Below are positions 1 to 16,420 of a stretch of DNA of 51,019 bases, one piece after another. Numbering within the stretch: the first letter of the stretch is position 1; each line of letters opens with the position of its first letter. The DNA is taken from the NCBI GenBank assembly GCA_030432715.1, contig JAUIML010000004.1, forward strand, positions 1-51,019, given 5' to 3'. Under the pieces are notes generated by a model. It had not been told where the DNA came from and did not search any database. It was given only the letters and a program-made list of their open reading frames with translations. Origin of the DNA: Acidimicrobiia bacterium (lineage in GTDB: Bacteria > Actinomycetota > Acidimicrobiia > Acidimicrobiales > Aldehydirespiratoraceae). The position numbers and the translations under genes are program-made.

Positions 1-29
1 CCGCCGACGAGAGCGACGGCGACGAGTAG
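1..29 (+). CDS. 3' end of upstream gene (probably an injection-system structural gene)
   Basis: Only the last eight codons are visible. They read ADESDGDE and end in TAG at 27-29, in the only frame that gives a plausible acidic tail. In contractile injection clusters the sheath gene commonly precedes the first tube gene, so a sheath C-terminus is the natural guess, but nothing in these residues proves it. The next start is 37 bases downstream, with an AGGAG ribosome-binding site at about 53-57. Confidence 0.4.
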
Positions 30-66
30 TACGCCCGATCAGATCTAGGAACAGGAGAACCACGAC

Positions 67-507
67 ATGCCAATCGGAGAAGACGCCCTCGGCGCCTACA
101 ACTTCCAGGTGGAGATCGATGGGGTCACCATCGCCCAGTTCAAGGAAGTCACCGGGCTCTCGGTCGAGATCAAGGTGATCGAGCACGAAGAGCTCACCAT
201 GGGCGGCAAGCCCATCCTCAAGAAGATCCCGGGCCCGAAGAAGTGGGGCGACGTCACCCTCAAGCGCGGTCTCACCGACGACCCGGGCTGGTGGGAATGG
301 ATCAACGAAGTCCACTCCGGAAACATCGACGGTGGCCGCCGCAACGGCTCCATCGTGCTGTACGACTACGCCCTCGGCGAGCAGCAGCGCTTCAACTTCA
401 TCAACGGCTGGCCCTCCAAGGTCAGCATCGGCGGCCTGAAGGCCGGCGGCGCCGAGGTCGTGGTCGAGGAATGCACGCTCGTCCATGAGGGCCTCGAGAT
501 CGCATGA
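67..507 (+). CDS. Contractile injection system inner tube protein (T4 gp19-like), first copy
   Basis: A 146-aa protein of the T4 gp19/Afp1 tail-tube family. Hexamers of this fold stack into the rigid inner tube that contraction of the sheath drives forward. The N-terminus (YNFQVEIDGVTIAQFKEVTGL) is the classic start of the family: a beta strand followed by a conserved 'xxEVTGL' loop. The segment GPKKWGDVTLKRGLTDD matches the conserved 'ItLkRG' strand. Length is typical. Start chosen at the ATG 9 bases after AGGAG. The stop overlaps the next start (ATGA), so translation is probably coupled. A second tube paralogue lies at 3148-3711. Confidence 0.93.
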   Translation: MPIGEDALGAYNFQVEIDGVTIAQFKEVTGLSVEIKVIEHEELTMGGKPILKKIPGPKKWGDVTLKRGLTDDPGWWEWINEVHSGNIDGGRRNGSIVLYDYALGEQQRFNFINGWPSKVSIGGLKAGGAEVVVEECTLVHEGLEIA

Positions 508-911
508 CCATGGCCGAGGCCGTGCTGCCAGACGAACACGGCTTGCAGACGACCTTCGAGTTCGAACTCCCGCGGGGCTATGTCGCCAACGACGGCACAG
601 TCCACCGCCGAGGGATCATGCGGCTGGCGACGGCACGCGACGAGATCCTTCCGCTGCGCGATCCGCGGGTGCGCGACAACGAGGCGTACCTCACGGTCCT
701 GCTGCTGTCACGAGTCGTCACCTCGCTTGGCGATCTGGATCAGGTCAACGCGTCCACCATCGAGGGGCTCTTCGCTCCCGATCTCGCGTTCCTCCAGGAC
801 CTCTACCGCCGGATCAATCAGGAGGGCCACACGCACGCGAGCGTGCGGTGCCCGTCATGCGAAACGGAGTTTGCGGTCGATGTGACCGGTGGTTTGTCGG
901 GGGGATGCTGA
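504..911 (+). CDS. Phage tail assembly chaperone-like protein with C-terminal Cys motif
   Basis: A 135-aa protein between the tube gene and a tiny conserved gene, the usual place for a tail-assembly-chaperone-like protein in these clusters. The core (YVANDGTVHRRGIMRLATARDEI through LRDPRVRDNEAYLTVLLLSRVV) resembles the family annotated as phage tail assembly protein, with the typical 'MRlATarDEi' stretch. The C-terminus carries CPSC (a zinc-knuckle half) and ends in Cys, so it may bind metal with a partner. The start ATG at 504 overlaps the previous stop; an in-frame ATG at 510 is an alternative. Function is inferred from context and similarity. Confidence 0.75.
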   Translation: MTMAEAVLPDEHGLQTTFEFELPRGYVANDGTVHRRGIMRLATARDEILPLRDPRVRDNEAYLTVLLLSRVVTSLGDLDQVNASTIEGLFAPDLAFLQDLYRRINQEGHTHASVRCPSCETEFAVDVTGGLSGGC

Positions 912-1066
912 TGTACGCAGAGGATCGCCTGCTCAGCGACGCTGCGTACATCGCTCACAACCTCCACTGGTCGCTGGGAAGCATCCTCGACCTCGAGCAC
1001 CGTGACCGCGAGTTCCTGCTCACGCAGATCGAGTCGTGGTACCCGGCCGAGGAAGTCGAGGCCTGA
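911..1066 (+). CDS. Small conserved injection-system protein (DUF6760-like)
   Basis: A 51-aa protein that starts inside the previous stop (TGATG at 909-913). The sequence (YAEDRLLSDAAYIAHNLHWSLGSILDLEHRDREFLLTQI) has the hallmark of the short family, which I recall as DUF6760, that sits directly behind the tail chaperone in many eCIS loci: an aromatic, acidic start, a central 'HW' and an 'LEHRDRE' helix. It is predicted all-helical and soluble. Its role is unknown, and assembly or a small baseplate subunit are both possible. An in-frame ATG at 905 would add two residues. Easily missed because it is so short. Confidence 0.8.
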   Translation: MYAEDRLLSDAAYIAHNLHWSLGSILDLEHRDREFLLTQIESWYPAEEVEA

Positions 1067-1071
1067 TCGTC

Positions 1072-3102: not shown

Positions 3103-3155
3103 TGCAGACCTCCGTGCACCCGTCGTCCACCGAAGGAGTGATGAACCATGGCTGA
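3102..3155 (+). other. Possible 17-codon coupling ORF
   Basis: An ATG inside the stop of the preceding gene (TGATG) opens a frame reading MQTSVHPSSTEGVMNHG. It ends at TGA 3153-3155, just past the start of the second tube gene (3148). It may keep ribosomes moving across the 45-base gap. The good GAAGGAG site at 3133-3139 also serves the tube gene directly, so this may be chance. Confidence 0.2.
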
Positions 3156-3711
3156 TCCCGGTGTCGCCTATGTCTTCCAGATCGCGATCGATGGCATCCT
3201 CTTCGGCAACTTCACGAGCGTGTCGGGCCTGAGCGCGAAGTACGAGACCGAGGAGGTGAAGGAGGGTGGCGAGAACACCCACGTCCACCATCTGCCCGGA
3301 CGCATGACCTACACCAACGTCACGCTCGAACGACCCGTCGACTACGGGACGATGGCCTTGGCGGCCTGGTTCAGCAAGTTCCAGAAGAACCTGTCGAAGG
3401 GTTCGTCCAACTCCCGCAACAACGCGAGCATCATGGCCTACGGGGCCAACCACATCCCGATCGCCGAATGGACCCTGCTCGATGCCGTGCCGGTCGCCTA
3501 CACCGGGCCGAAGCTGAGCGCCGGCAAGTCGGAGATCCTCACCGAGTCGATCGAGCTCGCCCACAACGGCTTCTGGAGCCTCTCGTCAAGCGTGCAGGGC
3601 ATCACTGCAGCGACGGCGGTCGCCGCCGGCGCGGTCGTCGCGATGGGCATGTCGGCCAAACGGGAGCTCGACCTGGTGTCGCGAGCCGGCATGCCGCTGG
3701 GAGGCATCTGA
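3148..3711 (+). CDS. Contractile injection system tube protein (T4 gp19-like), second copy
   Basis: A 187-aa tube-family protein related to the one at 67-507, with the same N-terminal signature (YVFQIAIDGILFGNFTSVSGLSAKYETEEVKEGG). It resembles the Afp5-type second tube protein that forms the tube's first rings on the baseplate. It is about 40 residues longer; the extra C-terminal part (SSVQGITAATAVAAGAVVAMGMSAKRELDLVSRAGMPLGGI) is Ala/Gly-rich and could be a lumen-facing or baseplate-contacting tail. GAAGGAG lies 8 bases before the ATG. The stop overlaps the next start (TGATG at 3709-3713). Confidence 0.92.
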   Translation: MADPGVAYVFQIAIDGILFGNFTSVSGLSAKYETEEVKEGGENTHVHHLPGRMTYTNVTLERPVDYGTMALAAWFSKFQKNLSKGSSNSRNNASIMAYGANHIPIAEWTLLDAVPVAYTGPKLSAGKSEILTESIELAHNGFWSLSSSVQGITAATAVAAGAVVAMGMSAKRELDLVSRAGMPLGGI

Positions 3712-4385
3712 TGAAGCTCGCCAAGGCCCGGCTCGAGAACCGGGAGAAGAAGAGCCAATACGTCGAGTTCCAGTTCAACCCCGACACCATCGCGTTCACC
3801 AAGTCGGCCAAGTGGCGCGAACAGCGGACCCAGGCCGGCGAGAACGGCCCGGTCCAGCAGTTCGAGGGCACCGACGCGATCACGTTGTCGCTCGATCTCC
3901 TGCTCGACGACGCCGAGGAGGGAACCTCGCGCGTGCCCGACGCGGTCAACCTCCTCGCCTCGTGGACGAACCCGACGGAGGCGTCGAAGAAGGACAAGGC
4001 GCCGGAGGCGCCCGAACTCGTCTTCTCCTGGGGCCAGTTCAAGATCGGGCAGACCGGTGACTTCTCGTGCCACCTCATGTCGGTCAACGTCAACTTCACC
4101 ATGTTCCGTCCCAACGGGGTGCCGGTGCGGGCCAAGGTGAAGGTCGAACTCAAGTCGACCAAGAAGATCGCCTGGCGCCAGAACCCGACCTCGGGTGGGC
4201 TCCGGCCCCAGCGGCGCCACGTGCTCCAACGAGGCGACCGACTCGGCGTGATCGCCAACCGCGAGTACGGCGATGCCGGCTACTGGCGCCAGATCGCCGA
4301 CTTCAACGGACTGCAGGATCCGTTCAACCTGCCCATCGGACGCCAGATCCTGCTGCCCGCCCTCGACGAGATGCCGAGGATCTGA
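3711..4385 (+). CDS. LysM-domain tube-initiator/baseplate hub protein (Afp7/gp53-like)
   Basis: A 224-aa protein. The N-terminal ~140 residues (VEFQFNPDTIAFTKSAKWREQ) match the 'CIS tube protein' family, with the usual 'FqFNPdti..tks..W' motif. Residues ~165-220 form a LysM domain (HVLQRGDRLGVIANREYGDAGYWRQIADFNGLQDPFNLPIGRQILLP). In T4 and Afp-like particles this protein sits between the spike hub and the tube, and its LysM fold packs against other baseplate parts rather than binding peptidoglycan. The start ATG overlaps the previous stop, and a single base separates this stop from the spike gene. Confidence 0.9.
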   Translation: MKLAKARLENREKKSQYVEFQFNPDTIAFTKSAKWREQRTQAGENGPVQQFEGTDAITLSLDLLLDDAEEGTSRVPDAVNLLASWTNPTEASKKDKAPEAPELVFSWGQFKIGQTGDFSCHLMSVNVNFTMFRPNGVPVRAKVKVELKSTKKIAWRQNPTSGGLRPQRRHVLQRGDRLGVIANREYGDAGYWRQIADFNGLQDPFNLPIGRQILLPALDEMPRI

Positions 4386-4386
4386 C

Positions 4387-6081
4387 ATGGCCGACGCGAA
4401 CTACACCGCAGCCCCGAGCCTCGAGGTCAACGGTCAACCCCTCGACCCCGATCTCGTGCAGTCGCTCGTGGAAGTGGTGGTCGACTCCGACCTGACGGCG
4501 GCCGACAGTTGCGAGATCACGATCCTCGACATCGCGCAGTCCGCCTTCGACGGCATGAAGTACGGCACCAAGATCAAGGTGAGCGTGCCCGCGGTGGACC
4601 CGGGCAAGAAGCTCGTGCCGATCTTCGAGGGCGAGATCTACGGATCGGAGTTCGAGGCCGACGAACGCGGCTCCTACACCCGGATCACTGCCTACGACCC
4701 GTCGTTTCGCCTGCGCCAGCACCGGGCGACGAGGGCGCACGTCAGCGTGACCGACAGCGACATTGCCCGGTCGATGGCCGGCGAGGTCGGTCTCCGGCTC
4801 GGCAAGGTCGACAAGTCGAGTGTCGTGCACGAACACATGGGGCAGATCAACCAGACCGACTGGGACTTCCTCCAGGAGCGGGCGGCCGACAACGGCTACG
4901 AGCTCTACCTGCGCGACGGAAAGCTCAACTTCTGCAATCCGATGACCACGACGTCGGGGGCGATCGACCTCACTCGCGGGGACGATCTGATCCGGTTCCG
5001 GGCCCGCACCAGCGGGGTCGAGCAGGTCGACACCATCCACGTGCGGGGATGGGACCCGAAGACGAAAAAGGAAGTGAAGGCTCGGGAGCCGGCGAAGAGC
5101 AAGGCCACCGCACTGAGCCCCGACCCGGCGCGTGAAGTTCGCTCGCTCAAGACCAAGGATCGGGTGACCGCCCGCCCGGAGATGACAACGGCGGCCGAAT
5201 GTGCGGCGCTCGCCAAGTCGCTCGCCGAGAAGACGGCCACGACTGCGGTGTTCGCCGAAGGAGTGGCTCTGGGGCGACCCGAGCTGGCGGCCGGCAAGGT
5301 CGTCAACATCAAGGACGTTGGTCGTTTCAGCGGCAAGTACGTGCTGACCCGGGCTCGCCACACGATCGCCGCCGGCGACTACCGGACCACGTTCGTCGTG
5401 TCGGGAAGTCACGACCGGACCCCCCTCGGGCTCACGACCAACCGGCCGCGCACCGACTACACGGGCACGTATCCGGCGATCGTCACGAGCCTGCAGGACA
5501 AGGAGAAGCTCGGGCGGGTGAAGCTCAAGTTCCCCTGGCTCGACGAGACCTACGAGTCGGGGTGGGCGCGCGTCGTGCAGACCGGCGCCGGCGCCGGCGA
5601 GGGGCTGCTCTGGTACCCCGAGGTCGGCGACGAAGTCCTCGTCGGTTTCATCGGCGGCGACCCCCGGCGCCCCACCGTCATCGGGGGCATGTTCAACGGC
5701 AAGGACAAGCCGCCCTTCGCCGACCACATCTCGAAGAACGGCGAGGTCGAGATCCGCGGGATGAAGTCGAGGACGGGCCACACCATCGCCTTCCACGACA
5801 AGAAGGGCGAGGAACGGATCGAGATCAACTCCAACGGCGACTCGTGCGTCATCCATCTCAAGGAGAAGGACAAGCAGATCATCATCGAGAGCAAGGGCGA
5901 CGTGACGGTCAAGGCCGCGAAGAATGCGATCGTCGAGGCGGGCGGCGACGCGACGGTCAAGGCCCAGAAGAACCTCGCTCTCGAGTCCGGCGCCAACACC
6001 GAGATCAAGGCGGGCGGTGGCCTCAAGATCCAGGCCGCCGCAGTGGTCGAGATCAAGGGCGCCCTCGTGAAGTTGAACTGA
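4387..6081 (+). CDS. VgrG-like spike/hub protein (gpD + gp5-like OB fold, Afp8-type)
   Basis: A 564-aa protein. Residues 1-~335 are the gpD/gp27-like hub (DLTAADSCEITILD; DWDFLQERAADNGYELYLRDGKLNF). Residues ~360-440 form the gp5 OB fold (YPAIVTSLQDKEKLGRVKLKFPWLDE...WYPEVGDEVLVGFIGGDPRRP). The C-terminus is a triple beta-helix-like needle of short Lys/Gly/Ala strands (VTVKAAKNAIVEAGGDATVK). It would form the trimeric puncturing spike capped by the PAAR protein encoded next. No extra C-terminal effector domain follows the needle, so cargo must be loaded elsewhere. ATG at 4387 directly follows the upstream TGA. Confidence 0.95.
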   Translation: MADANYTAAPSLEVNGQPLDPDLVQSLVEVVVDSDLTAADSCEITILDIAQSAFDGMKYGTKIKVSVPAVDPGKKLVPIFEGEIYGSEFEADERGSYTRITAYDPSFRLRQHRATRAHVSVTDSDIARSMAGEVGLRLGKVDKSSVVHEHMGQINQTDWDFLQERAADNGYELYLRDGKLNFCNPMTTTSGAIDLTRGDDLIRFRARTSGVEQVDTIHVRGWDPKTKKEVKAREPAKSKATALSPDPAREVRSLKTKDRVTARPEMTTAAECAALAKSLAEKTATTAVFAEGVALGRPELAAGKVVNIKDVGRFSGKYVLTRARHTIAAGDYRTTFVVSGSHDRTPLGLTTNRPRTDYTGTYPAIVTSLQDKEKLGRVKLKFPWLDETYESGWARVVQTGAGAGEGLLWYPEVGDEVLVGFIGGDPRRPTVIGGMFNGKDKPPFADHISKNGEVEIRGMKSRTGHTIAFHDKKGEERIEINSNGDSCVIHLKEKDKQIIIESKGDVTVKAAKNAIVEAGGDATVKAQKNLALESGANTEIKAGGGLKIQAAAVVEIKGALVKLN

Positions 6082-6088
6082 GAGAACG

Positions 6089-6481
6089 ATGGGACAACCA
6101 GCAGCAACCCTCAACGACCGGATCATGGGCATGTGCGCCACGCACCAGATCCCCAGCCCGGCCGGCGCGCCGATGCCCAGCCCGGCGCCGATGCCGTTCA
6201 GCTCACCCCTCACGCTCGGCCTCGCGATGACGGTCCAGATCGGCGGGAAGCCCGCGGCCGTGCAGGGATCGTCGGGCTTCAACACTCCCCCCCACGTCGG
6301 ACTCCACGCGACCGATCCCCACATGGCGCCGCCGACCCAGAGCGGCCGGGTCTTGGTCGGGAGCACCACCGTGCAATTCGAGGGCAAGGGCGCGGCCTAC
6401 ACCGGCTGTCAGACGAGCATCTGCTTCCAGATGCCCGGCAACCTCATGGGCACCGCGGCGACCGTGCAGATCGGACCCTGA
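6089..6481 (+). CDS. PAAR-domain spike tip protein
   Basis: A 130-aa protein with no fused effector. It shows the PAAR-like pattern of eCIS tips: an N-terminal 'PAATLNDRIMGMCATHQI', a Pro-rich loop (SPAGAPMPSPAPMPFSSP), then repeated 'VqIGGKPAAVqGSS', 'GRVLVGSTTVQFEGKGAAYTGC' and 'GTAATVQIG' beta hairpins. His and Cys residues (C16, H18, H58, H62, C108, C113) include candidate ligands for the metal that pins the cone. It starts 7 bases after the spike gene. Confidence 0.9.
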   Translation: MGQPAATLNDRIMGMCATHQIPSPAGAPMPSPAPMPFSSPLTLGLAMTVQIGGKPAAVQGSSGFNTPPHVGLHATDPHMAPPTQSGRVLVGSTTVQFEGKGAAYTGCQTSICFQMPGNLMGTAATVQIGP

Positions 6482-6490: not shown

Positions 6491-6901
6491 ATGCTGACCC
6501 ACAACGACAATCCGTTCGTCGGCACGGGCTGGGCCTACCCCGTGGGCGTCAACGCCATCGGCGGCATCGCCATGGTCGATGGCGTCGACGAGATCGAGCA
6601 GGCGATGTATCTCATCCTCGCCACGACGCCCGGCGAACGGCCCATGCGTCCCGAGTTCGGGTGTCCCCTCGTCGACTACCTGTTCGATCCCATCGACGCG
6701 ACCACCTGCGGACGCATCGAACGCACCGTCGAGGAGTCGCTGCAGCGCTGGGAGCCGCGCGTCGACATCACCGCGGTCGAGGTCGTCATCGATCCCGACA
6801 CCGACGGCCGCGTCTTCATCGACATCAACTACGTGATCCGCGACACGTACGACGTGCGCAGTCTCGTGTTCCCCTTCTACCTGATCCCCGACCACCACTG
6901 A
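6491..6901 (+). CDS. Baseplate wedge protein, GPW/gp25 family
   Basis: A 136-aa gp25-like protein, the most conserved wedge subunit of contractile systems; it links baseplate to sheath. Family marks are the conserved core EIEQAMYLILATTPGERPMRPEFGCPLVDYLFDPID (containing the 'l.T.pGeR...pefG' motif) and a C-terminal beta-rich half (VDITAVEVVIDPDTDGRVFIDINYVIRDT). Length is typical. It starts 9 bases after the PAAR gene and precedes the gp6/J-like gene by 19 bases, where an AAGAGAGGA ribosome site lies. Confidence 0.93.
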   Translation: MLTHNDNPFVGTGWAYPVGVNAIGGIAMVDGVDEIEQAMYLILATTPGERPMRPEFGCPLVDYLFDPIDATTCGRIERTVEESLQRWEPRVDITAVEVVIDPDTDGRVFIDINYVIRDTYDVRSLVFPFYLIPDHH

Positions 6902-6920: not shown

Positions 6921-8933
6921 ATGGCACTCCCCGCCCCCCGACTCGACGACCGCTCGTTCCAGGACCTGGTCGACGATGCGAAGCGCTTCATTCAGGAGCG
7001 CTGCCCCGAGTGGACCGACCACAACGTGTCCGATCCCGGCATCACGCTCGTCGAGACGTTCGCGTGGATGACCGACCTCCTGTTGTTCCGACTCAATCGC
7101 GTGCCCGACCGCACCTTCATCAAGTTCCTCGATCTGCTCGGGGTCCATCGCTATGCGCCGACCGCCGCCATGGCCGCGGTCGACTTCCGGCTCTCTGCTC
7201 CCCAGGACGAGCCGATCACCATTCCCGCCGGCACGGTCGTCTCGACCCCGCGGACCATCAGCGACGCCGCCGTGCCCTTCACGACCATCAGCGACCTCAG
7301 GGTCGTCTCCTCGGCGATCGACGTCGTCGCCAACCGCACCGGCAAGCAGCGCAACATCCGCGACATCACCGCGACGCTCGACATGGACCGCGCCATCCCG
7401 TGCTTCAGCGACACGCCCGAACCCGACGACGCCCTCTACTTCGGCTTCGATGCCGGCCTACCCGATCATCTCGTCGTCATCGAGTTCGACTGTGAGGTCG
7501 CCGGCCACGGCATCAACCCGAACCGACCGCCCCTGCGGTGGGAGGCGTGGGACGGCGACGACTGGGAACCGTGCGACGTGAGTCTCGACGAAACCGGCGG
7601 TTTGAACCGACCGGGCAATGTCGAGTTGCAGCTCCCGCCCAACCACGCGATCGCAGAGATCGACGACGTGCGCAAGGGATGGATCCGAGCCCGCGTGATC
7701 GAGGACGACGAGATCGAGGCCTACCGTTCGTCGCCCACGATCCGCTCCATCCGTGGCTATGTGATCGGGGCCACGGGCAACGCAGTCAACGCCGAGTTCG
7801 TCGACTCCGAGATCCTGGGGATCTCATCGGGCGTCGCCGGCCAGGAGTTCCACCTGAAGAACGCGCCGGTCGTCGCCAGCGACGAGCCGTTCGTCGTGCT
7901 GATCTCCCAGCCCGACCTCGACGAGGACGACGCCGAGAGCGTCGACGACGAGGACGACGATGGACCCGCGCCCCAGGTCGGCTACCAGCCGTGGGAACTC
8001 CGCTCCGACTTCGCCGACAGCGGACCGGATGACCGACACTTCACCCTCGATGCCCACGCCGGCATCGTGAAGTTCGGGCCGATGCTCCGCGACCCCGACG
8101 GGTCGGCCCGCCGCCACGGCGCCGTCCCGCCCCGCGGGGTGACGATCACCGCGTCGCGCTATCGCACCGGCGGGGGCACGGCCGGCAACGTCTCGGCCGG
8201 CGCCATCTCGGTCCTGCGTTCCTCGATACCGATGGTCGCGTCGGTCAACAACCGGCGATCGGCCCGCGGCGGCGTCGACGCGGAGACCGTCGATCAGGCC
8301 AAGGAGCGCGGTCCGGTGCAGCTCCGGGTTCGCAACCGAGCGGTGACGATCGAGGACTTCGAGTACCTCGCCCGCGAAGCCGCACCCGAGCTGGCCCGGG
8401 TGCGAGCCCTCGAGGTGACCGACGACGGGGCGGCCCCAGGGGTGCGGGTGCTGTTGGTGCCCGACGTGGGTGGGCCAGAAGAGGCACTCGAGCTGCGCGA
8501 CCTGTTCCCCAACGAGGCGCTGCGCGACCGTGTCGTCGAGTTCCTCGACCGCCGGCGGGTGATCGGCACCCGCCTGGTCGTCGAACCTCCGACCTATCTC
8601 GGCCTCCGGGTGGACGCCGACGTGACCCCGTTGCCCGATGCGAACCCCGCCGACGTCGAGACCGAGGTCAACATCGCTCTCCGCCGCTACTTCCACCCGG
8701 TGGCGGGTGGCCGCAACGGGACGGGATGGGAGTTCGGTCGGGACGTGCGCGTGAGCGAGGTCTACGCCGTGATCCAACGGGTGGCGGGTGTCGACATCGT
8801 GCAGAACGTCGAGCTCTTCGTGGTCAACCCCGAGTCCGGCGAGTCCGAGTCGGCCGGCGACGTCGTCGAACTGTTCGACACCGATCTGCTGCTGCCCGCC
8901 AACCACCAGATCACGATGGTGAACGAGCCATGA
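6921..8933 (+). CDS. Baseplate assembly protein, gp6/J-like wedge (Afp11-type)
   Basis: A 670-aa wedge protein of the 'putative baseplate assembly protein' family. The start (LPAPRLDDRSFQDLVDDAKRFIQERCPEWTDHNVSDPGITLVETFAWMTDLLLFRLNRVPDR) is the diagnostic N-terminus of this family. The rest is beta-rich, with an acidic insert at ~332-350 (DLDEDDAESVDDEDDDG) that may be a flexible loop. The C-terminal third (QLRVRNRAVTIEDFEYLAREA) matches baseplate J proteins. It should dimerise around the hub together with the next protein. The stop overlaps the next start (ATGA). Confidence 0.94.
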   Translation: MALPAPRLDDRSFQDLVDDAKRFIQERCPEWTDHNVSDPGITLVETFAWMTDLLLFRLNRVPDRTFIKFLDLLGVHRYAPTAAMAAVDFRLSAPQDEPITIPAGTVVSTPRTISDAAVPFTTISDLRVVSSAIDVVANRTGKQRNIRDITATLDMDRAIPCFSDTPEPDDALYFGFDAGLPDHLVVIEFDCEVAGHGINPNRPPLRWEAWDGDDWEPCDVSLDETGGLNRPGNVELQLPPNHAIAEIDDVRKGWIRARVIEDDEIEAYRSSPTIRSIRGYVIGATGNAVNAEFVDSEILGISSGVAGQEFHLKNAPVVASDEPFVVLISQPDLDEDDAESVDDEDDDGPAPQVGYQPWELRSDFADSGPDDRHFTLDAHAGIVKFGPMLRDPDGSARRHGAVPPRGVTITASRYRTGGGTAGNVSAGAISVLRSSIPMVASVNNRRSARGGVDAETVDQAKERGPVQLRVRNRAVTIEDFEYLAREAAPELARVRALEVTDDGAAPGVRVLLVPDVGGPEEALELRDLFPNEALRDRVVEFLDRRRVIGTRLVVEPPTYLGLRVDADVTPLPDANPADVETEVNIALRRYFHPVAGGRNGTGWEFGRDVRVSEVYAVIQRVAGVDIVQNVELFVVNPESGESESAGDVVELFDTDLLLPANHQITMVNEP

Positions 8934-9469: not shown

Positions 9470-12269
9470 TCGACCCCGGCCCGGGATCGAGCGCGTAGGA
9501 GTCGACCAGCGCCTCGTAGGCCGATCGGAGCTGACCGGCCCGCGCCTCTCCGGCGTTGGCGATGGCGATCCGCCACAGCCCGTCGGCGCCGGGGTCGATC
9601 TCGATCACCGCCTCGGCGATCCGACCCGCGCGCGCCGCGTCGACCGGAGCAAGCTCGTCTACCAGGGCTTCGGCCGCCCGAGAGATCCGCGCGGAGATCT
9701 CCCGCCGCGCCTCGACGGCCCAATCGGTGGCCCCGAGGTCGTCGACGAGCGCGCCGTACATCCCGGTCGCCGCCTCCAGGGCCTCTGCGCGGTCCTCGGG
9801 CGCAGCCGACCCGTGAGCAAGGAGCTCGCGCAAGGTCAAGAGGTCGACGGTCGTTGTGGCCGACGGGACGAGCGAGTACCGGGCGCCGTCTCGCTCGATG
9901 GTGCCGATCTGGTGGGCCTCGACCTCGATGCGGACCTTCGAGATCGCCACCTGGAGGTTGCGACGGGCCCGCGTGTCGTCCTTGTCCGGCCAGAAGGCCG
10001 CCATCAACCGGTCGCTGTGGACCCACTCCCCTGCGTGCACGGCCAGGAAGGCGAGCACCTCGCGGTGCAGGGGACTCACCCCGAGCGCGATCGGCTCCTC
10101 TTCGACGAGCACCTGGAAGGAACCGAGCACGCGGACGGTCACCGACCGTTCCTCAGCCGCGGCGTCGGCATCCCACCCGTTGCTCCGCCGCAGACGCTGG
10201 GCGAGTCGGACGAGGTCGTAGCGCCGGGCCAGTCGATCGGCTTGCTCGTCGAGCACCGGATCGTGGCGGGCCGCCGACTCCGCACGGGCGACGGCCACCA
10301 GCAGCTGCCCGAAGCTCCCGGTGCGACGGGTCGCCGACTCGAGCGCCTCGAGATCGGCGACCGGCTGATCGGTGGCAGCCGCGGCAGCGGCCTCGAAGCA
10401 GCGAGCCAGCATGGCCAACTCGTCGTAGCCGCCCTCGGCGAAGGTGGCGCCGGCGTCGCCGAACGGTCGTGGGTGCGGGAGGCCCGCATGGATCAACGCC
10501 ACGCCGTCGATCATCCGCACCAGGCCTCCGCCGAGGTGATCGTTGGACACGGCGCACTCTTGGGCGAGTGCGTCGGTGCTGTCGGGCGCGGTCGCCCCCC
10601 GGGCGACCGCCCCCACCACCCGCTCGACGATTCGGGCATCGAGCCCCTTCGCCGCCTGTTGGATCCGGCGGATGGCGACGGGCGAGCACCCCTCGTCGCC
10701 GGCCCGCAGCAGGTCGACCACCAGTCTCGTGGCGGCGGCGATCGCCGCCGAGAGACCACCGAGTGTCTCCTCGGCCTCTCGGAGACCGACCGATGCGGCC
10801 GCGAGGTTGCCCGTCAAAACGTCGGCCACCGCTCGCTGGACGCCGCTCGTCGACTCGTCGGAAGCGACCGCCCCGCGCCGCAACGTGGCGGAAACCTGGC
10901 CGACCCAACCGGTGATCGGCGTCGCCTCCCCGAGAAGCCACGCCTCGAGGCTGCGGAGCTCCTGACGAGCCCGCCGACCAGCGGCATCGCTCGTGTCGAG
11001 AAGCGTGACCGCATGGGTGTAGCGAACCCGCGCCTCGACGAGGTCACCCTGGCGAACGAGCTGTCGTGCGCTGGTGAGCAACACGAAGGGGTCTTGCTCG
11101 CGCATGGCCGGGGGGAGCACCTCGAGCCACCGGCCGGGACCGACGGAGAGTTCGTCACCGTTGTTGTCGAGGATGCGACGCACCGCATCGAGGTGACCGG
11201 CGCGAGCGAAGTAGCGGATCGCCTCGGCCGGTTCGCCCTCGTTCTCGACCAGCGTAGCTGCGTCGAGATGGCGCTGGGCGACCTCTGCGGCGCCGATCTG
11301 CTCCGTCAGCCGTCCCAGCAGGTGAGTGCGCAGGAGCTCGTGACATCGGAACGACTCCCCGCCCGTCGCGTCGTCGCCGAACAGCCCCGCCGCCCGGATC
11401 GAGCGCAGCATCGAAGCAGAGTTCGCGACACCGAGCAGCGCGTCGGCGCGGGCGGCGGTGACCCGCTCGAGGACCGAGGTCGCGATGAGGAAGTCGCGTT
11501 CCTCGGGCTGAAGGCTCGACAGGACCTCGGACATCAGGAAGTCGTGGAGCATCCCGGTGCTGCCGCGTAGGCCCGAGATCATCTGGCTGCGGTGCTCCGG
11601 CGCTGCGTTGCGCGAAGCGACCGAGAACAACCTCAGCGCGGTGGCCCATCCGTCGGTGTAGCGGCACAGAAGATGAAGGTCGGCCGGTGCGATCGCCATG
11701 TCGAACTGGGAACGGAGTAGATCGCCGACTTCCCAGAGCCGGAAGCGAAGGTCCTCGAAGTCGACGACCATCGGTTCGACCGCCCCGAACTGGTTGCGCA
11801 ACGCCATGGGACACTCGTGGCGCGATGCCATCAGCACCGCCACGTGGGGTGGCCGGTAGCGCACGAGCCGGTGCACGGCGAGTTCCGCGCCGGAGCCTTC
11901 GATGCTGTGGAGATCATCGAGCACGATCAGGGTCGACGAATACGCCGGGGAGTCGAGGTCGGCGATCACGTCGTCGATCATCGCGTCGTGATCACGTGAC
12001 GCTCCCAGAGCCGCGTCGAGCAACGAGACGAGTCGGGGTTCCTCCGCGTCGCCGTGGTCGAGCCGCACCCACGCGACACGGCCCGGCCACGCCTCCGCGA
12101 GCTGGGCAACCGCCGTGGTCTTGCCGATTCCGGCCGCGCCGTGGACGTAGCCGACACCGGCATGTGCCAGCTCGGCCACCCGGTCGGTGATGCGGGGGCG
12201 CGGGAGGGCGTTGAGGACGGGGGCAGCGACCTTCTCTCCGATCACCACCCGACGTCCCGTCGACTCCAC
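9462..12269 (-). CDS. STAND ATPase-TPR-SARP (BTAD) transcriptional regulator
   Basis: About 935 aa. The N-terminus holds a MalT/LuxR-type STAND NTPase with Walker A (GAAGIGKTT, ~44-52) and Walker B (TLIVLDDLHS). A helical TPR-like middle follows. The last ~230 residues form an OmpR-type winged helix plus BTAD domain (VRVLGSFQVLVEEEPIALGVSPLHREVLAFLAVHAGEWVHSDRLMAAFWPD), as in SARP activators but placed at the C-terminus. GTG 12269 is preferred because AGGAG lies 7 bases before it, and the upstream ATG at 12311 sits inside the likely -10 box (TAGTAT). Convergent with, and overlapping, the injection operon; a regulator of that system is the obvious inference but is untested. Confidence 0.88.
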   Translation of the reverse strand: MESTGRRVVIGEKVAAPVLNALPRPRITDRVAELAHAGVGYVHGAAGIGKTTAVAQLAEAWPGRVAWVRLDHGDAEEPRLVSLLDAALGASRDHDAMIDDVIADLDSPAYSSTLIVLDDLHSIEGSGAELAVHRLVRYRPPHVAVLMASRHECPMALRNQFGAVEPMVVDFEDLRFRLWEVGDLLRSQFDMAIAPADLHLLCRYTDGWATALRLFSVASRNAAPEHRSQMISGLRGSTGMLHDFLMSEVLSSLQPEERDFLIATSVLERVTAARADALLGVANSASMLRSIRAAGLFGDDATGGESFRCHELLRTHLLGRLTEQIGAAEVAQRHLDAATLVENEGEPAEAIRYFARAGHLDAVRRILDNNGDELSVGPGRWLEVLPPAMREQDPFVLLTSARQLVRQGDLVEARVRYTHAVTLLDTSDAAGRRARQELRSLEAWLLGEATPITGWVGQVSATLRRGAVASDESTSGVQRAVADVLTGNLAAASVGLREAEETLGGLSAAIAAATRLVVDLLRAGDEGCSPVAIRRIQQAAKGLDARIVERVVGAVARGATAPDSTDALAQECAVSNDHLGGGLVRMIDGVALIHAGLPHPRPFGDAGATFAEGGYDELAMLARCFEAAAAAATDQPVADLEALESATRRTGSFGQLLVAVARAESAARHDPVLDEQADRLARRYDLVRLAQRLRRSNGWDADAAAEERSVTVRVLGSFQVLVEEEPIALGVSPLHREVLAFLAVHAGEWVHSDRLMAAFWPDKDDTRARRNLQVAISKVRIEVEAHQIGTIERDGARYSLVPSATTTVDLLTLRELLAHGSAAPEDRAEALEAATGMYGALVDDLGATDWAVEARREISARISRAAEALVDELAPVDAARAGRIAEAVIEIDPGADGLWRIAIANAGEARAGQLRSAYEALVDSYALDPGPGSTT

Positions 12270-12296
12270 CACCACGCTCCTCGTTCGAGCCGTCCC

Positions 12297-12315
12297 TGCC
12301 GCGTGCGGCATACTA
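12297..12315 (-). promoter_or_regulatory. Promoter -10 (TAGTAT) and 14-bp dyad for the STAND-SARP gene
   Basis: On the - strand TAGTAT (12315-12310) matches the TANNNT -10. Directly downstream, across the expected transcription start, lies the dyad TGCCGCGTGCGGCA (12297-12310; arms TGCCGC/GCGGCA). It sits in the divergent space between this gene and the M23-like gene, so it could be an operator for both. Confidence 0.45.
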
Positions 12316-12347: not shown

Positions 12348-13088
12348 GTGGCCGAAGAACCGGACGAGCCCGAAGAGGACGTCTCGAGTCTGCTTGCGCC
12401 ACGTTTCCGGCGTGCCGCGAGACCGGTTCCCGCGTCCGAGCCCACTCCCGCAACCGCCGCCGCCCAGACGCCCCCAGTACCGGTGACACCGGTCCCTCCC
12501 GCGTCAACGACCCCGACGCCCACACCTCCCGCGACCGAGGCCACACCACCGGCCGAGCTACCCGAGGTCGCCACACCCTCCCGGTCGAGCGCCCCGCCGG
12601 TCCTGACCGCCGAAGCCGCCACCGCCATCGTCGGCAACGAGCGCTTCCTCCCCGTTGCGGAGGCGATCATCGTGGCCGGCAAGGAGCCCGGCCCGATCCG
12701 GATCTTCGTGCCGGTCGGCACCGCCGTCCACGTGATCGAAGAGGGCCGGGTCGCCGAGATCGACGAACACATCGGCGGTGAGGTCACCGTTCGGGCCGCG
12801 GGCGACCGCTTCTACCACTATCGGCGTCTGCTGCCGTCGTCGGTCTGCGTGGAATCCGGCGAACGGGTGGCTCCAGGTGCCATCATCGGCACCGTGGGCG
12901 ATGCCATCGACGACGACCCGCCCTGCCTCGTCGTCGGACTCCAGTCCGGCGACGGAAGCTGGGCCGACATCAGCGCCGAACTCGTGGGCCTCTGCGATCC
13001 CGGCGAGCTCGGCCTGTGTGTGGCCGACGCTGCGAGTGAATGGATCGATCCGCTGGCTGCCGACCGGGCGGCCGCGGCGACCTCATGA
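12348..13088 (+). CDS. Degenerate M23 (LytM-like) peptidase-fold protein in injection locus
   Basis: A 246-aa protein with no signal peptide. Residues 1-20 are acidic (MAEEPDEPEEDVSSLLAPRF) and ~25-85 are Pro/Thr-rich linker. Residues ~105-225 resemble the LytM beta sheet: FYHYRRLLPSSVCVESGERVAPGAIIGTVGDA parallels 'tyYaHL....V..Gq.V..Gq.IG.vG'. The zinc ligands are absent: the HxH strand is replaced by CLVVGL, and no N-terminal HxxxD site is seen. It is therefore probably not an active endopeptidase. The GTG at 12348 follows GAGAGGA. It overlaps the next gene by ATGA, so the two are co-translated. M23-like genes do occur in actinobacterial injection clusters. Confidence 0.6.
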   Translation: MAEEPDEPEEDVSSLLAPRFRRAARPVPASEPTPATAAAQTPPVPVTPVPPASTTPTPTPPATEATPPAELPEVATPSRSSAPPVLTAEAATAIVGNERFLPVAEAIIVAGKEPGPIRIFVPVGTAVHVIEEGRVAEIDEHIGGEVTVRAAGDRFYHYRRLLPSSVCVESGERVAPGAIIGTVGDAIDDDPPCLVVGLQSGDGSWADISAELVGLCDPGELGLCVADAASEWIDPLAADRAAAATS

Positions 13089-14503
13089 TCCGCTGCCGCG
13101 TCTGCGATCGCGAACACGACGCCGCCACCAAGGTGTGCCCCTGCGGCGCCGACCTCGCCGTCGACGGTGTTGCCATCGGCGCCGACGCCCGGTTCGGTGA
13201 CACCGAACTGGGCGACGCGCTCCCCGATCTCGGTGACCTTCCCGATCTCGGCGACGCGCTCCCCGACTTCCCCGTCGACGACTCGCTGACCGATCTCATC
13301 TCGATCTCCGACGAGCCTGCTGCCGCGACCTCACCGACCCCCGCTCCCGCTCCGGTCGAGCCGCCGGCGGCGCCCGTCGACGACACCACCGCCCCGACGG
13401 ACCCCACGATCACGGCGCCCGCGGCGAAGACGCAACCCACCCGCCGCGACGGGTTCGCCGTGAAGCCCACAGCCGATTCCGGCGATCCGAACAAGGGAGC
13501 GTCGCGGCGCACGCCGAAGGACCGCGAGACCGCGCCATCGTCCCCACTCCAGGACGTGCCCACGGCGCCGATCGTCGACGACGACGAACACTCGGTGTTC
13601 CGCGAGGGCGGGTGGGAAGGATCGGCTCTCCGCGACGAACTCGACATCACCCGCGCCGGCGGCGTCCGCGACTGCCCCGACTGTGGCCGGGAGAACACCG
13701 CAGACAGCCGCTTCTGCCGGTGCGGCCACCAATTCGCCTTCGCCGTTCGCACGGAGGTCGAAGCGCCACCCGAACCATCGGCCCTCACCTCGTTGTGGCG
13801 CCGTATCACCGGGACGGCCAAGAACAACCGCGGTGACGCCCGCACGTGGGGCCAACGGGCGCGCGACACCGGCGCCCGCCGGGGCATGCGCTACGCCCAG
13901 CGGCTCAGCGCTCGCACCCGCCTCGGGCGGACGGGTCTCATGCTCGCCGGCGGTGCCAGTGCGGTCATGGTGCTCGGCCCGCTCCGCAGCCAGGTCCAGG
14001 ATCTGCCCAATCTGTTCTCGGCCAGCCAGCCCACCCAGGTGGAGAACTGGAATCCCGGCGAGTGCGACGACGCGGCACGGGACGTGCCGAGCCGCCCCTG
14101 GCAGAGTCGGTGGCCCAGCGACGCGACCGCCACCCCCGACGGCGCCTGTCCCGGCGTGTTCGACGCGATCACCGGCACGTTCCCGCAGCCGACCGACATC
14201 GACCGGATCACGATCGAGATCGGCCCGACCAGCGGCCAACCCGACTCCACCCAGCTCAACTTCGGCCAACCGGTGATGAGCCCGCAGGTGGTGTCGCTCA
14301 CCTTCACCCACGAGGGCGATCGGGAGCCTACGGTGGTCGACCCGATCGAGCTCGCCGACACTGCCGCCGTGCAGGAGTTCGGCCGGTCGGTCCGCGACGC
14401 GACCGGCTTCACCCTCACCGTCGAGTCGATTCGCGACCGCGACGGCGCATGGGTCGAACTCGACATCGTGCAGATCGCCCAGATCGCCTTCTTCACCGAG
14501 TAG
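13085..14503 (+). CDS. Zinc-ribbon, single-pass membrane protein with extracytoplasmic beta-sandwich (possible CIS membrane adaptor)
   Basis: A 472-aa protein. Zinc ribbon 1 uses C4/C7/C18/C20. Residues 44-62 hold an LPDLGD-type repeat, then a disordered Pro/Thr-rich region runs to ~165. Zinc ribbon 2 uses C197/C200/C211/C213. A strongly basic stretch (~238-282) precedes one membrane segment (~283-301, GLMLAGGASAVMVLGPL). The C-terminal ~150 residues resemble a discoidin/NPCBM-like carbohydrate-binding fold (WNPGECDDAARDVPSRPWQSRW...ITIEIGPTSGQPDSTQLNFG). The basic stretch before the membrane segment predicts N-terminus inside, C-terminus outside. It ends 6 bases from the convergent neighbour. 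Adaptor role is inferred from layout only. Confidence 0.72.
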   Translation: MIRCRVCDREHDAATKVCPCGADLAVDGVAIGADARFGDTELGDALPDLGDLPDLGDALPDFPVDDSLTDLISISDEPAAATSPTPAPAPVEPPAAPVDDTTAPTDPTITAPAAKTQPTRRDGFAVKPTADSGDPNKGASRRTPKDRETAPSSPLQDVPTAPIVDDDEHSVFREGGWEGSALRDELDITRAGGVRDCPDCGRENTADSRFCRCGHQFAFAVRTEVEAPPEPSALTSLWRRITGTAKNNRGDARTWGQRARDTGARRGMRYAQRLSARTRLGRTGLMLAGGASAVMVLGPLRSQVQDLPNLFSASQPTQVENWNPGECDDAARDVPSRPWQSRWPSDATATPDGACPGVFDAITGTFPQPTDIDRITIEIGPTSGQPDSTQLNFGQPVMSPQVVSLTFTHEGDREPTVVDPIELADTAAVQEFGRSVRDATGFTLTVESIRDRDGAWVELDIVQIAQIAFFTE

Positions 14504-14509
14504 CCGGGA

Positions 14510-16420
14510 TCAGCTGAGCGGACCGAAGGCTCGACACTTCTCCGGGGGAACCCCGATCGGGAAGGCCTCGTCGAAATCGCTCTCGATCCCTTCGAGCAGG
14601 CCGTTGACAGTGTCGCAGAGTTCGACCGCGGCCCCCCGCGAATCGAAGCGGTCGACGATCAGGTAGAAGTCGGAGTCGAGCGCGCCGGGTAGGCGGATCA
14701 GCTCCATCGACGGTGGCGCCTCGGGCGTCTCCTTCACGGGACCGAAATAGATGTTGGCTCGATCGACCACCGGGGGGATGCCGGGATCGATCAGGACGTT
14801 GCGGATCTGTTCGAGCAGACCGGCGAGGGTGAGTCCCTCGCCCGTCAAGGGCAGCTGCTCCGACGGGAAGTAGCTGTAGACGATTGCGAAGGCGCCAACC
14901 GGGGCCCGCCCGTCGGCGTTCTCCGCCTCCTCGCGGTCCTCGATCGCCTGGATCGCATCGGCCACCTCTGCCCGGGTGACCGTCTCTGTCCGGCCAGGGA
15001 GGGCCTCGCCGGGGCTCACGCTGATCACGAACTCGCCGTTGACCGCGTCCTCGAGTGGCAGCGACACGTTGGCCGCAATCGTCTCGGGGTCGTCGAACGT
15101 CTGCTGTGGGACCCCGTTGACCGAGATGGTCCAGATCGCCTGGTCGGCGGTGCTGCACCCCTCGCCGTAGGTCCAGTTGACGGTCCAGACGGTGCCGTCA
15201 TCGGGCGATGCGGTGATGTCACCGATCACGGGCGCGTCGCACTGGTCGGGCAGCTGCGCCGTGACACAGTTGCCGGCCGGGAGATCGGAGGTGAGCAGGC
15301 CCCCAGGGCTGGCAACGCCGACGATCACCGATTGGGTCGTCTGTCCGCTGTCCGGATCGTCGAAGACCGACTGGATGAAGAGGCACTTGGTCGTGCCGCC
15401 CTCCACCGCGAGCGGGAACGCGCGGTCCTGTGCTCCCAACTCCTCCAGGTCGGCCTCGGGAATCGGATCGAAGCGGCCGGCGGCGTAGAGCACGGGGTCG
15501 GCGCTGATGATCTGATAGCCCGACGGCGGGTTGGGGGGCGGCTCCCAGGTGATCGTCAGCTGGTCGACACCGGGGGTGACGGCGAACTCGGTGGGCGGCA
15601 GGGGCGCGGCGACGGGGTTGGCCACGACCGCCTCGATGTCGGCGGTCTGGGCGCGGAAGATCACGAGACCGCCGATGAGCAGGAGAAGGGCGAAGGCGGC
15701 CATCATCCACTTGGCGACGATCGGCTTCTGTTCGAACGTTGCGTCGACGAACGCTTCGGTCTCGCCACCCGACGTGGCGCCCAGGTAGGCGTCGCGCACG
15801 CCCGCCTTGCGACGGTAGGAAACCTGATACGGAAGGTGGGTCGACGACCCCACGATCATCGACTTCCGAGGGCGGATCTTGAGGAACGCCTCGGCGGTGC
15901 CGTCGGGCGGCACTTCGATCTCGCGAGGCGAGAGGGCGAACGACAGCTTCTCGTCGGGGTCGAGGGTGCGGAGGCGAACCACGAGATCCTCGGTGCCGCG
16001 GTTGTGCATTTCGACTCTCGCCTTGGCCCGCCAGCGACCGGCGGCGCGGGCCGGCAACACCTTGGCGGCGAGAAGGTTGATCGCCCCGAGGGTGAGTTCG
16101 CCCTCGGCGATCTCGGTGCGGTCGTCGTCTTCTCGCGACTGGGCCCGGATGGCGAACGGAATCTGACCGCTCGTGATCAGCGAGTCGTAGGGCGGCCGGA
16201 AGATGACGGTGGCCTCGGCGACGTCGCCGACGTAGACCGACACCTGGGCCGGGATCACCTCGGTGTAGGCGGCCGCTTCACCGAGCACCGAGAGGTCGTA
16301 CTCCTCGACGATGTCGCTCGTGTTGCGGATCCGCACCACGGTCATGACCTCACTGCCCGGCTCCACGACCGGGCGTTCGTCAGTGAGTGTTACGACAGGG
16401 TCCAACTCGGCCTTCTCCAT
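14510..16420 (-). CDS. Single-pass membrane protein with two cytoplasmic beta-sandwich domains (CisA-like adaptor candidate)
   Basis: A 636-aa protein without signal peptide. Residues ~10-100 and ~110-228 are two Ig/CARDB-like sandwiches (PGSEVMTVVRIRNTSDIVEEYDLSVLG; ARVEMHNRGTEDLVVRLR). KPIVAK leads into one membrane helix (~238-255, MMAAFALLLLIGGLVIF). The outer part contains an Fn3-like domain from ~270 (LPPTEFAVTPGVDQLTITWEPP) and a C-terminal domain of ~150 residues. The N-terminal half resembles a protein found in Streptomyces CIS clusters and often annotated 'hydrolytic protein'. The layout, cytoplasmic N-terminus plus one helix, matches that reported for the CIS membrane adaptor CisA. 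No catalytic motif is visible. Confidence 0.72.
   Translation of the reverse strand: MEKAELDPVVTLTDERPVVEPGSEVMTVVRIRNTSDIVEEYDLSVLGEAAAYTEVIPAQVSVYVGDVAEATVIFRPPYDSLITSGQIPFAIRAQSREDDDRTEIAEGELTLGAINLLAAKVLPARAAGRWRAKARVEMHNRGTEDLVVRLRTLDPDEKLSFALSPREIEVPPDGTAEAFLKIRPRKSMIVGSSTHLPYQVSYRRKAGVRDAYLGATSGGETEAFVDATFEQKPIVAKWMMAAFALLLLIGGLVIFRAQTADIEAVVANPVAAPLPPTEFAVTPGVDQLTITWEPPPNPPSGYQIISADPVLYAAGRFDPIPEADLEELGAQDRAFPLAVEGGTTKCLFIQSVFDDPDSGQTTQSVIVGVASPGGLLTSDLPAGNCVTAQLPDQCDAPVIGDITASPDDGTVWTVNWTYGEGCSTADQAIWTISVNGVPQQTFDDPETIAANVSLPLEDAVNGEFVISVSPGEALPGRTETVTRAEVADAIQAIEDREEAENADGRAPVGAFAIVYSYFPSEQLPLTGEGLTLAGLLEQIRNVLIDPGIPPVVDRANIYFGPVKETPEAPPSMELIRLPGALDSDFYLIVDRFDSRGAAVELCDTVNGLLEGIESDFDEAFPIGVPPEKCRAFGPLS

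What the first reader, a model, noticed from the sequence alone, without database searches (positions are those of the whole stretch)
1..16420. Fibre-less contractile injection system followed by membrane-anchor genes: a probable cytoplasmic CIS
A complete baseplate-spike-tube set runs from 67 to 9469. Where fibre genes usually come, there is a regulator and two single-pass proteins with cytoplasmic N-termini. Established knowledge: Streptomyces CIS are cytoplasmic, lack fibres and need a membrane adaptor (CisA) to fire. Inference: this actinobacterium has the same kind of self-directed device, with different accessory proteins.
Basis: partly seen in the sequence, partly recalled or inferred. 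Interest (0 to 1): 0.78.

Follow-up and report, generated by a model that had tools for sequence, protein, structure and literature searches.

The report
Cytoplasmic injection machine with firing adaptor
This bacterium appears to carry a spring-loaded, phage-tail-like injection machine of the kind that Streptomyces uses inside its own cells, with distant versions of the known membrane firing adaptor and of the known effector, plus an extra partner gene locked to the adaptor.

Summary
In detail: a tube-baseplate-spike set (67-9469), no fibre gene found, then a convergent regulator and two single-pass proteins. 'Probable cytoplasmic CIS' is well supported; 'with different accessory proteins' is not. 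Gene 13085-14503 is CisA-family: two zinc ribbons, disordered linker, membrane helix, CBM32/F5-8C-like outer domain. The 468-aa CisA-position gene of a genome whose Cis11 equals solved S. coelicolor Cis11 has the same parts. Gene 14510-16420 is of the Sco4256-4258 effector family (E about 1e-26 to two ricin-tailed genes). blastp from CisA misses the window copy; profiles find it. Cap, AAA+ ATPase and eCIS_core genes lie on contig C200 of the same genome, with neighbours shared with a Cellulomonas CIS; the sheath was not found, probably lost in the assembly gap. New here: the window, three Cellulomonas and two Frankiaceae loci group together, and in all six a degenerate cytosolic M23/LytM-like gene (12348-13088) overlaps cisA by 4 bp, behind a regulator inserted after cis12. 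CisA-family genes also occur in 10 of 12 testable Chloroflexota loci. Cytoplasmic location and self-killing are untested. New variant of a known kind.

The parts
67..507 (+). inner tube protein (Cis1-like, gp19 family)
   Evidence: PF06841 1.8e-34, TIGR02241 1e-34; solved CIS tube proteins
504..911 (+). small Cys-containing protein between tube and baseplate genes, conserved in relatives; weak match to a tail assembly chaperone family
   Evidence: 68% identity in G042, also in G020 and G036; phrog_508 3e-5
911..1066 (+). 51-aa conserved small protein
   Evidence: homologues at the same place in L014, L017, L021
1036..3102 (+). Pro/Ala-rich protein, probably disordered, with conserved C-terminal stretch; its G042 counterpart carries an eCIS_core domain, none was matched in this one (start codon uncertain)
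3148..3711 (+). second tube protein (possible tube initiator)
   Evidence: TIGR02241 2e-28
3711..4385 (+). Cis7-like tube/hub protein with LysM-like end
   Evidence: PF19266 CIS_tube 2.5e-25 (scanned with a longer 5' end); 39% identity in G042
4387..6081 (+). VgrG-like spike (Cis8)
   Evidence: NF033848 1e-129, PF04717 7e-26 (scanned with a longer 5' end)
6089..6481 (+). PAAR spike tip (Cis10)
   Evidence: PF05488 3.6e-7
6491..6901 (+). gp25-like baseplate protein (Cis9)
   Evidence: PF04965 2.5e-24
6921..8933 (+). baseplate wedge Cis11
   Evidence: TIGR02243 8e-142; S. coelicolor Cis11 9gtp 1.2e-176
8930..9469 (+). baseplate wedge Cis12
   Evidence: TIGR02242 5.8e-29; 9gtp_E 2.4e-38
9462..12311 (-). 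AAA/STAND-type ATPase with a C-terminal transcription-regulator domain, convergent with the baseplate genes; homologues (E up to 1e-5) in 37 of 80 named CIS loci and in G042
12348..13088 (+). degenerate M23/LytM-like protein without zinc-ligand motif, signal or membrane segment (so probably cytosolic), overlapping cisA by 4 bp; found in 6 loci that group together in the Cis11 tree
13085..14503 (+). CisA-family membrane adaptor: zinc ribbon, disordered linker, zinc ribbon, basic stretch, membrane helix (about residues 284-300), CBM32/F5-8C-like outer domain
14510..16420 (-). Sco4256-4258-family protein: N-terminal Ig-like part, one membrane helix (about residue 240), C-terminal part of its own; probable CIS effector

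Best explanation
The locus is the downstream half of a chromosomal contractile injection system of the lineage that includes the S. coelicolor cytoplasmic CIS (published subtype IId). Most likely working (inferred from the Streptomyces system): particles are built and kept extended in the cytoplasm, filled with an Ig-like/single-helix effector (14510-16420). On a stress signal the CisA-family protein (13085-14503), whose zinc ribbons face the cytoplasm and whose sugar-binding-like domain lies outside the membrane, captures the baseplate (Cis11 in the published proposal) and lets the sheath fire at the cell's own membrane. In this sub-lineage the adaptor is made together with a soluble, catalytically dead M23/LytM-like protein that probably binds the adaptor or the baseplate and tunes docking or firing. 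A convergent STAND-type regulator probably controls expression. Shown here: gene content, homology, synteny, lineage. Inferred: cytoplasmic location, membrane topology and firing, role of the M23-like partner, self-killing.
For: Best solved relatives of Cis11 and Cis12 are from the S. coelicolor particle. CisA link: a profile of the outer domain from 14 rows (12 Streptomyces) finds 56 ORFs in 56 loci among 11,850 ORFs (E below 1e-3, its own rows included), among them Chloroflexota, G042, Cellulomonas and a Parafrankia; the window ORF scores 5.5e-8 with a profile of all rows but the window; the ribbon cysteines are invariant or nearly so in 47 rows; the modelled outer domain matches CBM32/F5-8C domains; the gene after cis12 in G336 (Cis11 100% identical to 9gtp over 648 residues) is 468 aa with the same parts, the length implied for CisA in PMC12237407. 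Effector link: E 1e-26 to two ricin-tailed genes of that cluster; homologue in 29 of 29 other CIS genomes asked, and in 6 of 6 strong-Cis11 relatives besides the own genome against 2 of 54 others (p 8e-8 with the own genome counted). M23-like gene: exactly the six members of one Cis11 group (SH-aLRT 92), 4-bp overlap with cisA in 6 of 6. Upstream half on C200, neighbours shared with Cellulomonas.
Against: No sheath gene was found in the 83%-complete assembly, so the machine could be broken; C200 and C219 are not joined and their first 400 bases share no 12-mer. The direct link of the window protein to CisA is marginal (mostly-Streptomyces profile 0.0048; single-sequence hhalign probability 26 against that profile and 70 against a Chloroflexota profile) and CisA blastp misses it; the link leans on intermediate sequences. 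Its membrane stretch is short (best 17-residue Kyte-Doolittle mean 1.69, 19-residue 1.31), and residues 321-360 of the model are below pLDDT 45. The support 92 is below the tree program's 95 mark, and the window branch is long. Four of the six effector matches among relatives are weak (7e-9 to 9e-6). Some Actinobacteriota CIS do have fibre genes (PMC12923769, passages), and an unlinked or unassembled fibre is not excluded. No expression or imaging data.
Confidence: 0.78

Rival explanations
1. An extracellular CIS: particles are released by lysis and aimed at other cells through an unlinked or unassembled fibre; the membrane proteins only help release.
For: Fibre genes are reported in many Actinobacteriota systems (PMC12923769, passages); part of the locus is unassembled.
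Against: No fibre match in the window or on C200; the slot after cis12 that holds fibres in other eCIS holds a CisA-family gene in 56 of 66 testable loci, in a few of them behind a regulator; the nearest solved system is the fibre-less S. coelicolor particle.
Confidence: 0.1
2. A decayed locus: the sheath or other parts are lost and the remaining genes are relics.
For: Sheath not found by family or by a relative's protein (that protein is a sheath by Pfam); same-genus genomes G001-G006 have no Cis11 match.
Against: The genes listed have open frames with homologues in other CIS loci; the assembly is 83% complete and C219 breaks where the sheath lies in G042; cap and ATPase genes are intact on C200.
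Confidence: 0.08
3. The M23-like protein is not a firing partner but cargo: a soluble tube-lumen passenger delivered to the cell wall.
For: M23/LytM fold, long low-confidence N-terminal half, no secretion signal seen.
Against: None of the six copies keeps the HxGxD ligand motif, and the one HxH (L048) is not at the aligned catalytic place, while 24 of 25 other M23 relatives aligned keep both motifs; its frame overlaps cisA, not a cargo gene.
Confidence: 0.25
4. The 14510-16420 protein is a second membrane anchor for the particle rather than an effector.
For: One strong membrane helix, adjacent to and convergent with cisA.
Against: Its N-terminal part and helix align with two ricin-tailed genes of the S. 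coelicolor-type cluster, whose family is reported as effectors whose deletion empties the tube lumen.
Confidence: 0.15

Closest known systems
CIS of Streptomyces coelicolor (subtype IId, cytoplasmic; SCO4242-4260)
   Same: Tube, baseplate and spike set; cap, AAA+ ATPase and eCIS_core genes (on C200); CisA-family adaptor; Sco4256-4258-family effector; no fibre found
   Different: PAAR gene present (absent in S. coelicolor, present in S. venezuelae, PMC10066040); cisA separated from cis12 by a regulator and an M23-like gene coupled to cisA; neither gene matched in the 31 kb of G336 looked at; Cis11 45% identical; sheath unassembled
CisA (SCO4242)
   Same: Two zinc ribbons, proline-rich linker, one membrane helix at nearly the same place, F5/8C-like outer domain; lengths 472 and 468
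   Different: Below blastp detection; second ribbon one residue shorter, as in the Cellulomonas and Parafrankia rows; insert in the outer domain; weaker membrane helix
Sco4256-4258 effectors
   Same: N-terminal Ig-like part and membrane helix (26% identity over 232 residues)
   Different: C-terminal part matches no Pfam family at E up to 0.1
Chloroflexota/Deinococcota cytoplasmic CIS (Roseiflexus, PMC12998442)
   Same: IId lineage, cytoplasmic particles reported there (passages)
   Different: The paper reports no close cisA homologues in Roseiflexus; other Chloroflexota loci here do have a CisA-family gene (10 of 12); Roseiflexus itself was not tested
M23/LytM peptidases and LytM-fold regulators (EnvC, DipM, SpoIIQ among the matches)
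   Same: Fold
   Different: No catalytic ligands, no export signal, tied to a CIS

Membership tests
Cytoplasmic CIS, subtype IId | Core proteins closest to the Streptomyces system rather than Afp/PVC, MAC/AlgoCIS-type or T6SS | tested here: met
   9gtp Cis11 1.2e-176 against 7aeb 2.6e-6 and Afp11 7e-4; for Cis12 only 9gtp_E
Cytoplasmic CIS, subtype IId | No fibre gene after the baseplate genes | tested here: met
   a stretch between C200 and C219 is unassembled
Cytoplasmic CIS, subtype IId | Sheath gene | tested here: inconclusive
   not found in an incomplete assembly
Cytoplasmic CIS, subtype IId | Cap and AAA+ ATPase genes | tested here: met
   C200: Pvc16_N 1.2e-41, AAA 1.9e-23; linkage to C219 by synteny only
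Cytoplasmic CIS, subtype IId | Free particles in the cytoplasm, not released; firing kills the producer | not testable with these tools
   needs cryo-ET and viability assays
CisA | Unstructured cytoplasmic N-terminal region, one membrane helix, conserved C-terminal domain of about 150 aa | tested here: met
   the helix is weak and topology is inferred from CisA
CisA | Sequence homology to CisA | tested here: met
   profile without the window 5.5e-8; lineage profile (window included) against mostly-Streptomyces profile, probability 98.7; direct blastp negative
CisA | Gene next to the baseplate genes | tested here: met
   behind cis12, the regulator and the M23-like gene here; directly after cis12 in G042, G336 and many of the 80 loci
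CisA | Needed for contraction in cells | not testable with these tools
   needs a mutant
Sco4256-4258 effectors | Shared N-terminal domain plus one membrane helix | tested here: met
   1.4e-26 and 1.9e-26; the compared genes are assigned by description, not by locus tag
Sco4256-4258 effectors | Loaded in the tube lumen, toxic | not testable with these tools
   needs particles and expression tests
Peptidase M23 (as an enzyme) | Zinc ligands (HxGxD, HxH) | tested here: not met
   both absent in the window copy; HxGxD absent in all six

The most novel reading that the evidence does not exclude
One sub-lineage of cytoplasmic CIS has turned a dead cell-wall-hydrolase fold into a cytosolic partner of the membrane firing adaptor: the M23-like protein and CisA form a two-part docking or safety-catch complex, made from overlapping, translationally coupled genes, that decides when the particle may fire at the cell's own membrane.
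Probability: 0.35. Interest if true: 0.7.

Novelty: new variant of a known kind. Interest (0 to 1): 0.5.

Why it matters
How a fibre-less CIS is told where and when to fire is open. CisA is the factor known from Streptomyces; it was found in 75 of 120 genomes by reciprocal BLAST (PMC12237407, section read), and Roseiflexus is said to lack close cisA homologues (PMC12998442, passages). Here a profile finds a CisA-family domain in 56 of 66 testable loci, Chloroflexota included, and points to two zinc ribbons as the most conserved parts of the otherwise variable cytoplasmic half, which makes the docking surface directly testable. The coupled M23-like gene offers a second component, for which my paper searches found no description, in genera that can be grown (Cellulomonas, Frankia).

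Tried and rejected
Rejected: phage remnant (no capsid or terminase match among 39 window proteins; beyond 16.4 kb the matched genes are ordinary chromosomal ones). Rejected: active M23 peptidase. Rejected: unrelated membrane anchors.

Led nowhere: Rfam and tRNA scans of the window were empty; PHROGs gave nothing for the two membrane proteins; contig-end overlap between C200 and C219 gave nothing. Paper searches, all seen as listings: no paper held 'contractile injection' with 'zinc ribbon' or with 'Acidimicrobi'; with 'LytM' and 'cytoplasmic' one T6SS paper; with 'M23' and 'Streptomyces' none; (at least two of contractile injection, Frankia, Cellulomonas) found 54 papers, 10 listed; two searches gave the CIS papers used. 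Papers opened: PMC12237407 (outline, three sections, passages), PMC10066040, PMC10020575, PMC12998442, PMC12923769 and PMC13277306 (passages only).

Mistakes and limits: the M23-like gene was translated in the wrong frame, so its lack of matches there means nothing; corrected from then on. Gene starts were chosen by eye and by a GC-frame script, so some are uncertain.
Full report
What is there. The window is contig C219, 1-51019, of a 310-contig, 83%-complete genome. A 565-residue piece of its rpoB is 76-80% identical to three MAGs titled Actinomycetes or Actinobacteria, 59-65% to five cultured actinobacteria, and 53% and 58% (longest pieces) to two Chloroflexota MAGs; a Nitriliruptorales MAG gives pieces of 78% and 51%. 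So 'actinobacterium' stands. From 67 to 9469 run tube, two small conserved genes, a Pro/Ala-rich gene, a second tube, Cis7-like, spike, PAAR, gp25, Cis11 and Cis12. Then follow a convergent STAND-type regulator (9462-12311, minus), an M23-like gene (12348-13088), a zinc-ribbon membrane protein (13085-14503) and an Ig-like membrane protein (14510-16420, minus). Beyond lie sugar-nucleotide and glycosyltransferase genes, then ordinary chromosomal genes.

The missing half. The contig starts 66 bp before the first tube gene. In the own genome a cap gene (Pvc16_N, 1.2e-41) lies on C200. C200 also holds an AAA+ ATPase, an eCIS_core gene cut by the contig end, a gene with SLT_3 and VanY domains, a LuxR-type gene and two dynamin-like genes. 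In Cellulomonas sp. Root485, a member of the same Cis11 group, the cap gene is followed by an SLT_3 gene (second domain NLPC_P60, not VanY), a LuxR-type gene (37% identical, opposite orientation) and two dynamin-like genes. That makes C200 and C219 two parts of one locus likely, though not proven: their first 400 bases share no 12-mer. No sheath was found in the own genome with PF04984 or with the G042 sheath protein (the latter is a sheath by Pfam); in G042 the sheath lies just upstream of the tube gene, where C219 breaks.

Which kind of CIS. Cis11 matches S. coelicolor Cis11 (9gtp; identified in PMC12237407) at 1.2e-176, next a wedge protein gp31 at 6.8e-7, and Afp11 at 6.8e-4; Cis12 matches only 9gtp_E.

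The zinc-ribbon membrane protein is CisA-family. In many of the 80 loci the ORF after cis12 has two CxxC ribbons, a proline-rich linker, a hydrophobic stretch and a C-terminal domain. In a 47-row alignment the window positions C4, C7, C18, C20, C200, C211 and C213 are invariant and C197 nearly so. A profile of the outer domain from 14 rows (12 Streptomyces, one Actinomadura, one Catenulispora) finds 56 ORFs in 56 loci among 11,850 ORFs at E below 1e-3. With all rows except the window the window ORF scores 5.5e-8; with three Cellulomonas and one Parafrankia row 1.9e-6; with the mostly-Streptomyces profile only 0.0048 and with a Chloroflexota profile 2.6e-5. The lineage profile, which includes the window, against the mostly-Streptomyces profile gives hhalign probability 98.7; the window alone gives 26, and 70 against Chloroflexota. 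Of 80 loci, 66 have at least 2.5 kb after cis11; 56 of these have the domain, 10 do not. Two of the ten (L042, L056) still have a double-ribbon ORF; the other eight include three Kribbella. Of the 12 Chloroflexota loci among the 66, 10 have it (counted). In 61 genomes (own plus 60 relatives), strong matches to the helix-plus-domain profile (E below 1e-20) occur in G000, G040 and G042 only; 16 others have weaker matches, the best 2.4e-10, many of them short and in large proteins, which I take for general F5/8C domains (the window is a row of that alignment).

To compare with CisA itself I looked for a genome with the S. coelicolor Cis11. G336, one of 392 genomes searched in that genus, is 100% identical over 648 residues. 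Its gene after cis12 is 468 aa, the length implied for CisA in PMC12237407, with two ribbons, a helix near residue 281 and an F5/8C-type domain. Zinc binding was proposed for one Cys-rich region before the helix in PMC10020575 (passages); the N-terminal ribbon is not mentioned in the passages I saw, and 'zinc' does not occur in the main text of PMC12237407. blastp of that CisA reaches 40 of the 47 rows at E below 1 and misses seven: the window, three Cellulomonas, one Parafrankia and two MAGs. The AlphaFold2 model of the window protein has mean pLDDT 65; both ribbons are at 80-94, residues 361-472 mostly 84-95 with dips to 59-70, residues 321-360 below 45. Its best solved matches are CBM32/F5-8C domains (7blg, 1.2e-5).

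The Ig-like membrane protein is of the effector family. It aligns over its N-terminal 250 residues and helix with two neighbouring genes of the G336 cluster that end in ricin-type lectin domains (E 1.4e-26 and 1.9e-26), as described for Sco4257 and Sco4258 in PMC10066040 (passages). Identity to those names is by description; I did not have the named records. A match was found in 30 of 30 genomes asked, the own genome by construction, so 29 of 29 others (27 of the 80 loci plus G040 and G042). Among the own genome and 60 relatives, 7 of 7 with a Cis11 match below 1e-100 have one (the own by construction; four of the other six weak, 6.7e-9 to 9e-6), against 2 of 54 others. Three genomes with weaker Cis11 matches (G043, G051, G054) are counted in the 54 and have none.

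The lineage-specific part. phmmer with the M23-like protein and then with its hits found homologues in L034, L040, L088 (Cellulomonas), L048 and L052 (Parafrankia, Frankia) and nowhere else among the loci then held; none in the 31 kb of the G336 cluster. In all six loci the regulator homologue (minus) lies between cis12 and the M23-like gene, which is followed by cisA; in L052 a small extra ORF lies before the regulator. In all six the M23-like stop overlaps the cisA start as ATGA or GTGA. The Cis11 tree puts exactly these six together (SH-aLRT 92, below the program's 95 mark; quick search, long window branch). A one-residue shortening of the second knuckle of the second ribbon is shared by the 5 members in alignment A2 and absent from the other 27 rows. 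The fold is M23/LytM: Pfam M23 in 5 of 6 at E up to 0.1, 4.7e-7 for the window (the L034 copy alone gave nothing at 0.01); Foldseek 5e-6; model mean pLDDT 63, residues 111-210 at 78-92 (six-row alignment). HxGxD is absent from all six and HxH from five; the HLH of L048 is not at the aligned catalytic place. In a sample of 396 genomes of the phylum the own copy scores 2.3e-84 and the next match 2.7e-13. Of the 29 other loci fetched there, 25 gave an alignable ORF; 24 of 25 keep both motifs, and none has a CisA domain in the short stretch held.

Mechanism. Taken from the literature: particles free in the cytoplasm, CisA needed for contraction, CisA N-terminus inside and C-terminus outside, predicted contact with Cis11, effectors in the lumen (PMC12237407, abstract, sections 7, 9 and 27 and passages; PMC10066040, passages). 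That the window system does the same is inference from homology. The role of the M23-like protein is a proposal from gene overlap and co-occurrence only.

Limits. The first-stage reading could not see the upstream half; I could not see the sheath. Fibre absence is shown for what is assembled. The 80 loci are the best matches to a Cis11 alignment led by the window, so counts describe that sample, not all CIS.

Noticed in passing
L017:17384-17986 (+) and L021:1118-1567 (-): In a more distant CIS lineage of the same family (G020, G036) the slot after cis12 holds a short protein that ends in a membrane helix and has weak zinc-ribbon matches (DZR about 4e-4 in both). It looks like a minimal anchor without an outer domain.
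   Followed up: partly
L107:3306-5159 (contig C200 of the window's genome): A gene with lysozyme-like (SLT_3) and VanY domains diverges from the cap gene; matches to it lie in the Cellulomonas Root485 locus and three Kribbella CIS loci. It may be a cell-wall-cutting cargo or release factor.
   Followed up: partly
L107:5971-9497: Two adjacent dynamin-like GTPase genes near the cap gene, matched also beside the Cellulomonas sp. Root485 CIS and in no other locus then held, many of which do not reach that far.
   Followed up: partly
window 1036-3102: Pro/Ala-rich protein with many short [IVL]DR motifs (seen by eye); the G042 counterpart has an eCIS_core domain that was not matched in this copy.
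   Followed up: no
L015:150-7946: In G042 a 2,599-aa gene between the ATPase and sheath genes has annexin repeats and a C-terminal match to a DNA-deaminase toxin family.
   Followed up: no
L042 and L056 (Chloroflexota), L073, L092, L100 (Kribbella), L083, L086, L087, L094, L095: Ten of 66 testable loci lack a match to the CisA-type outer domain; two keep a double zinc ribbon, in the other eight I saw neither. What triggers those machines is unknown.
   Followed up: no
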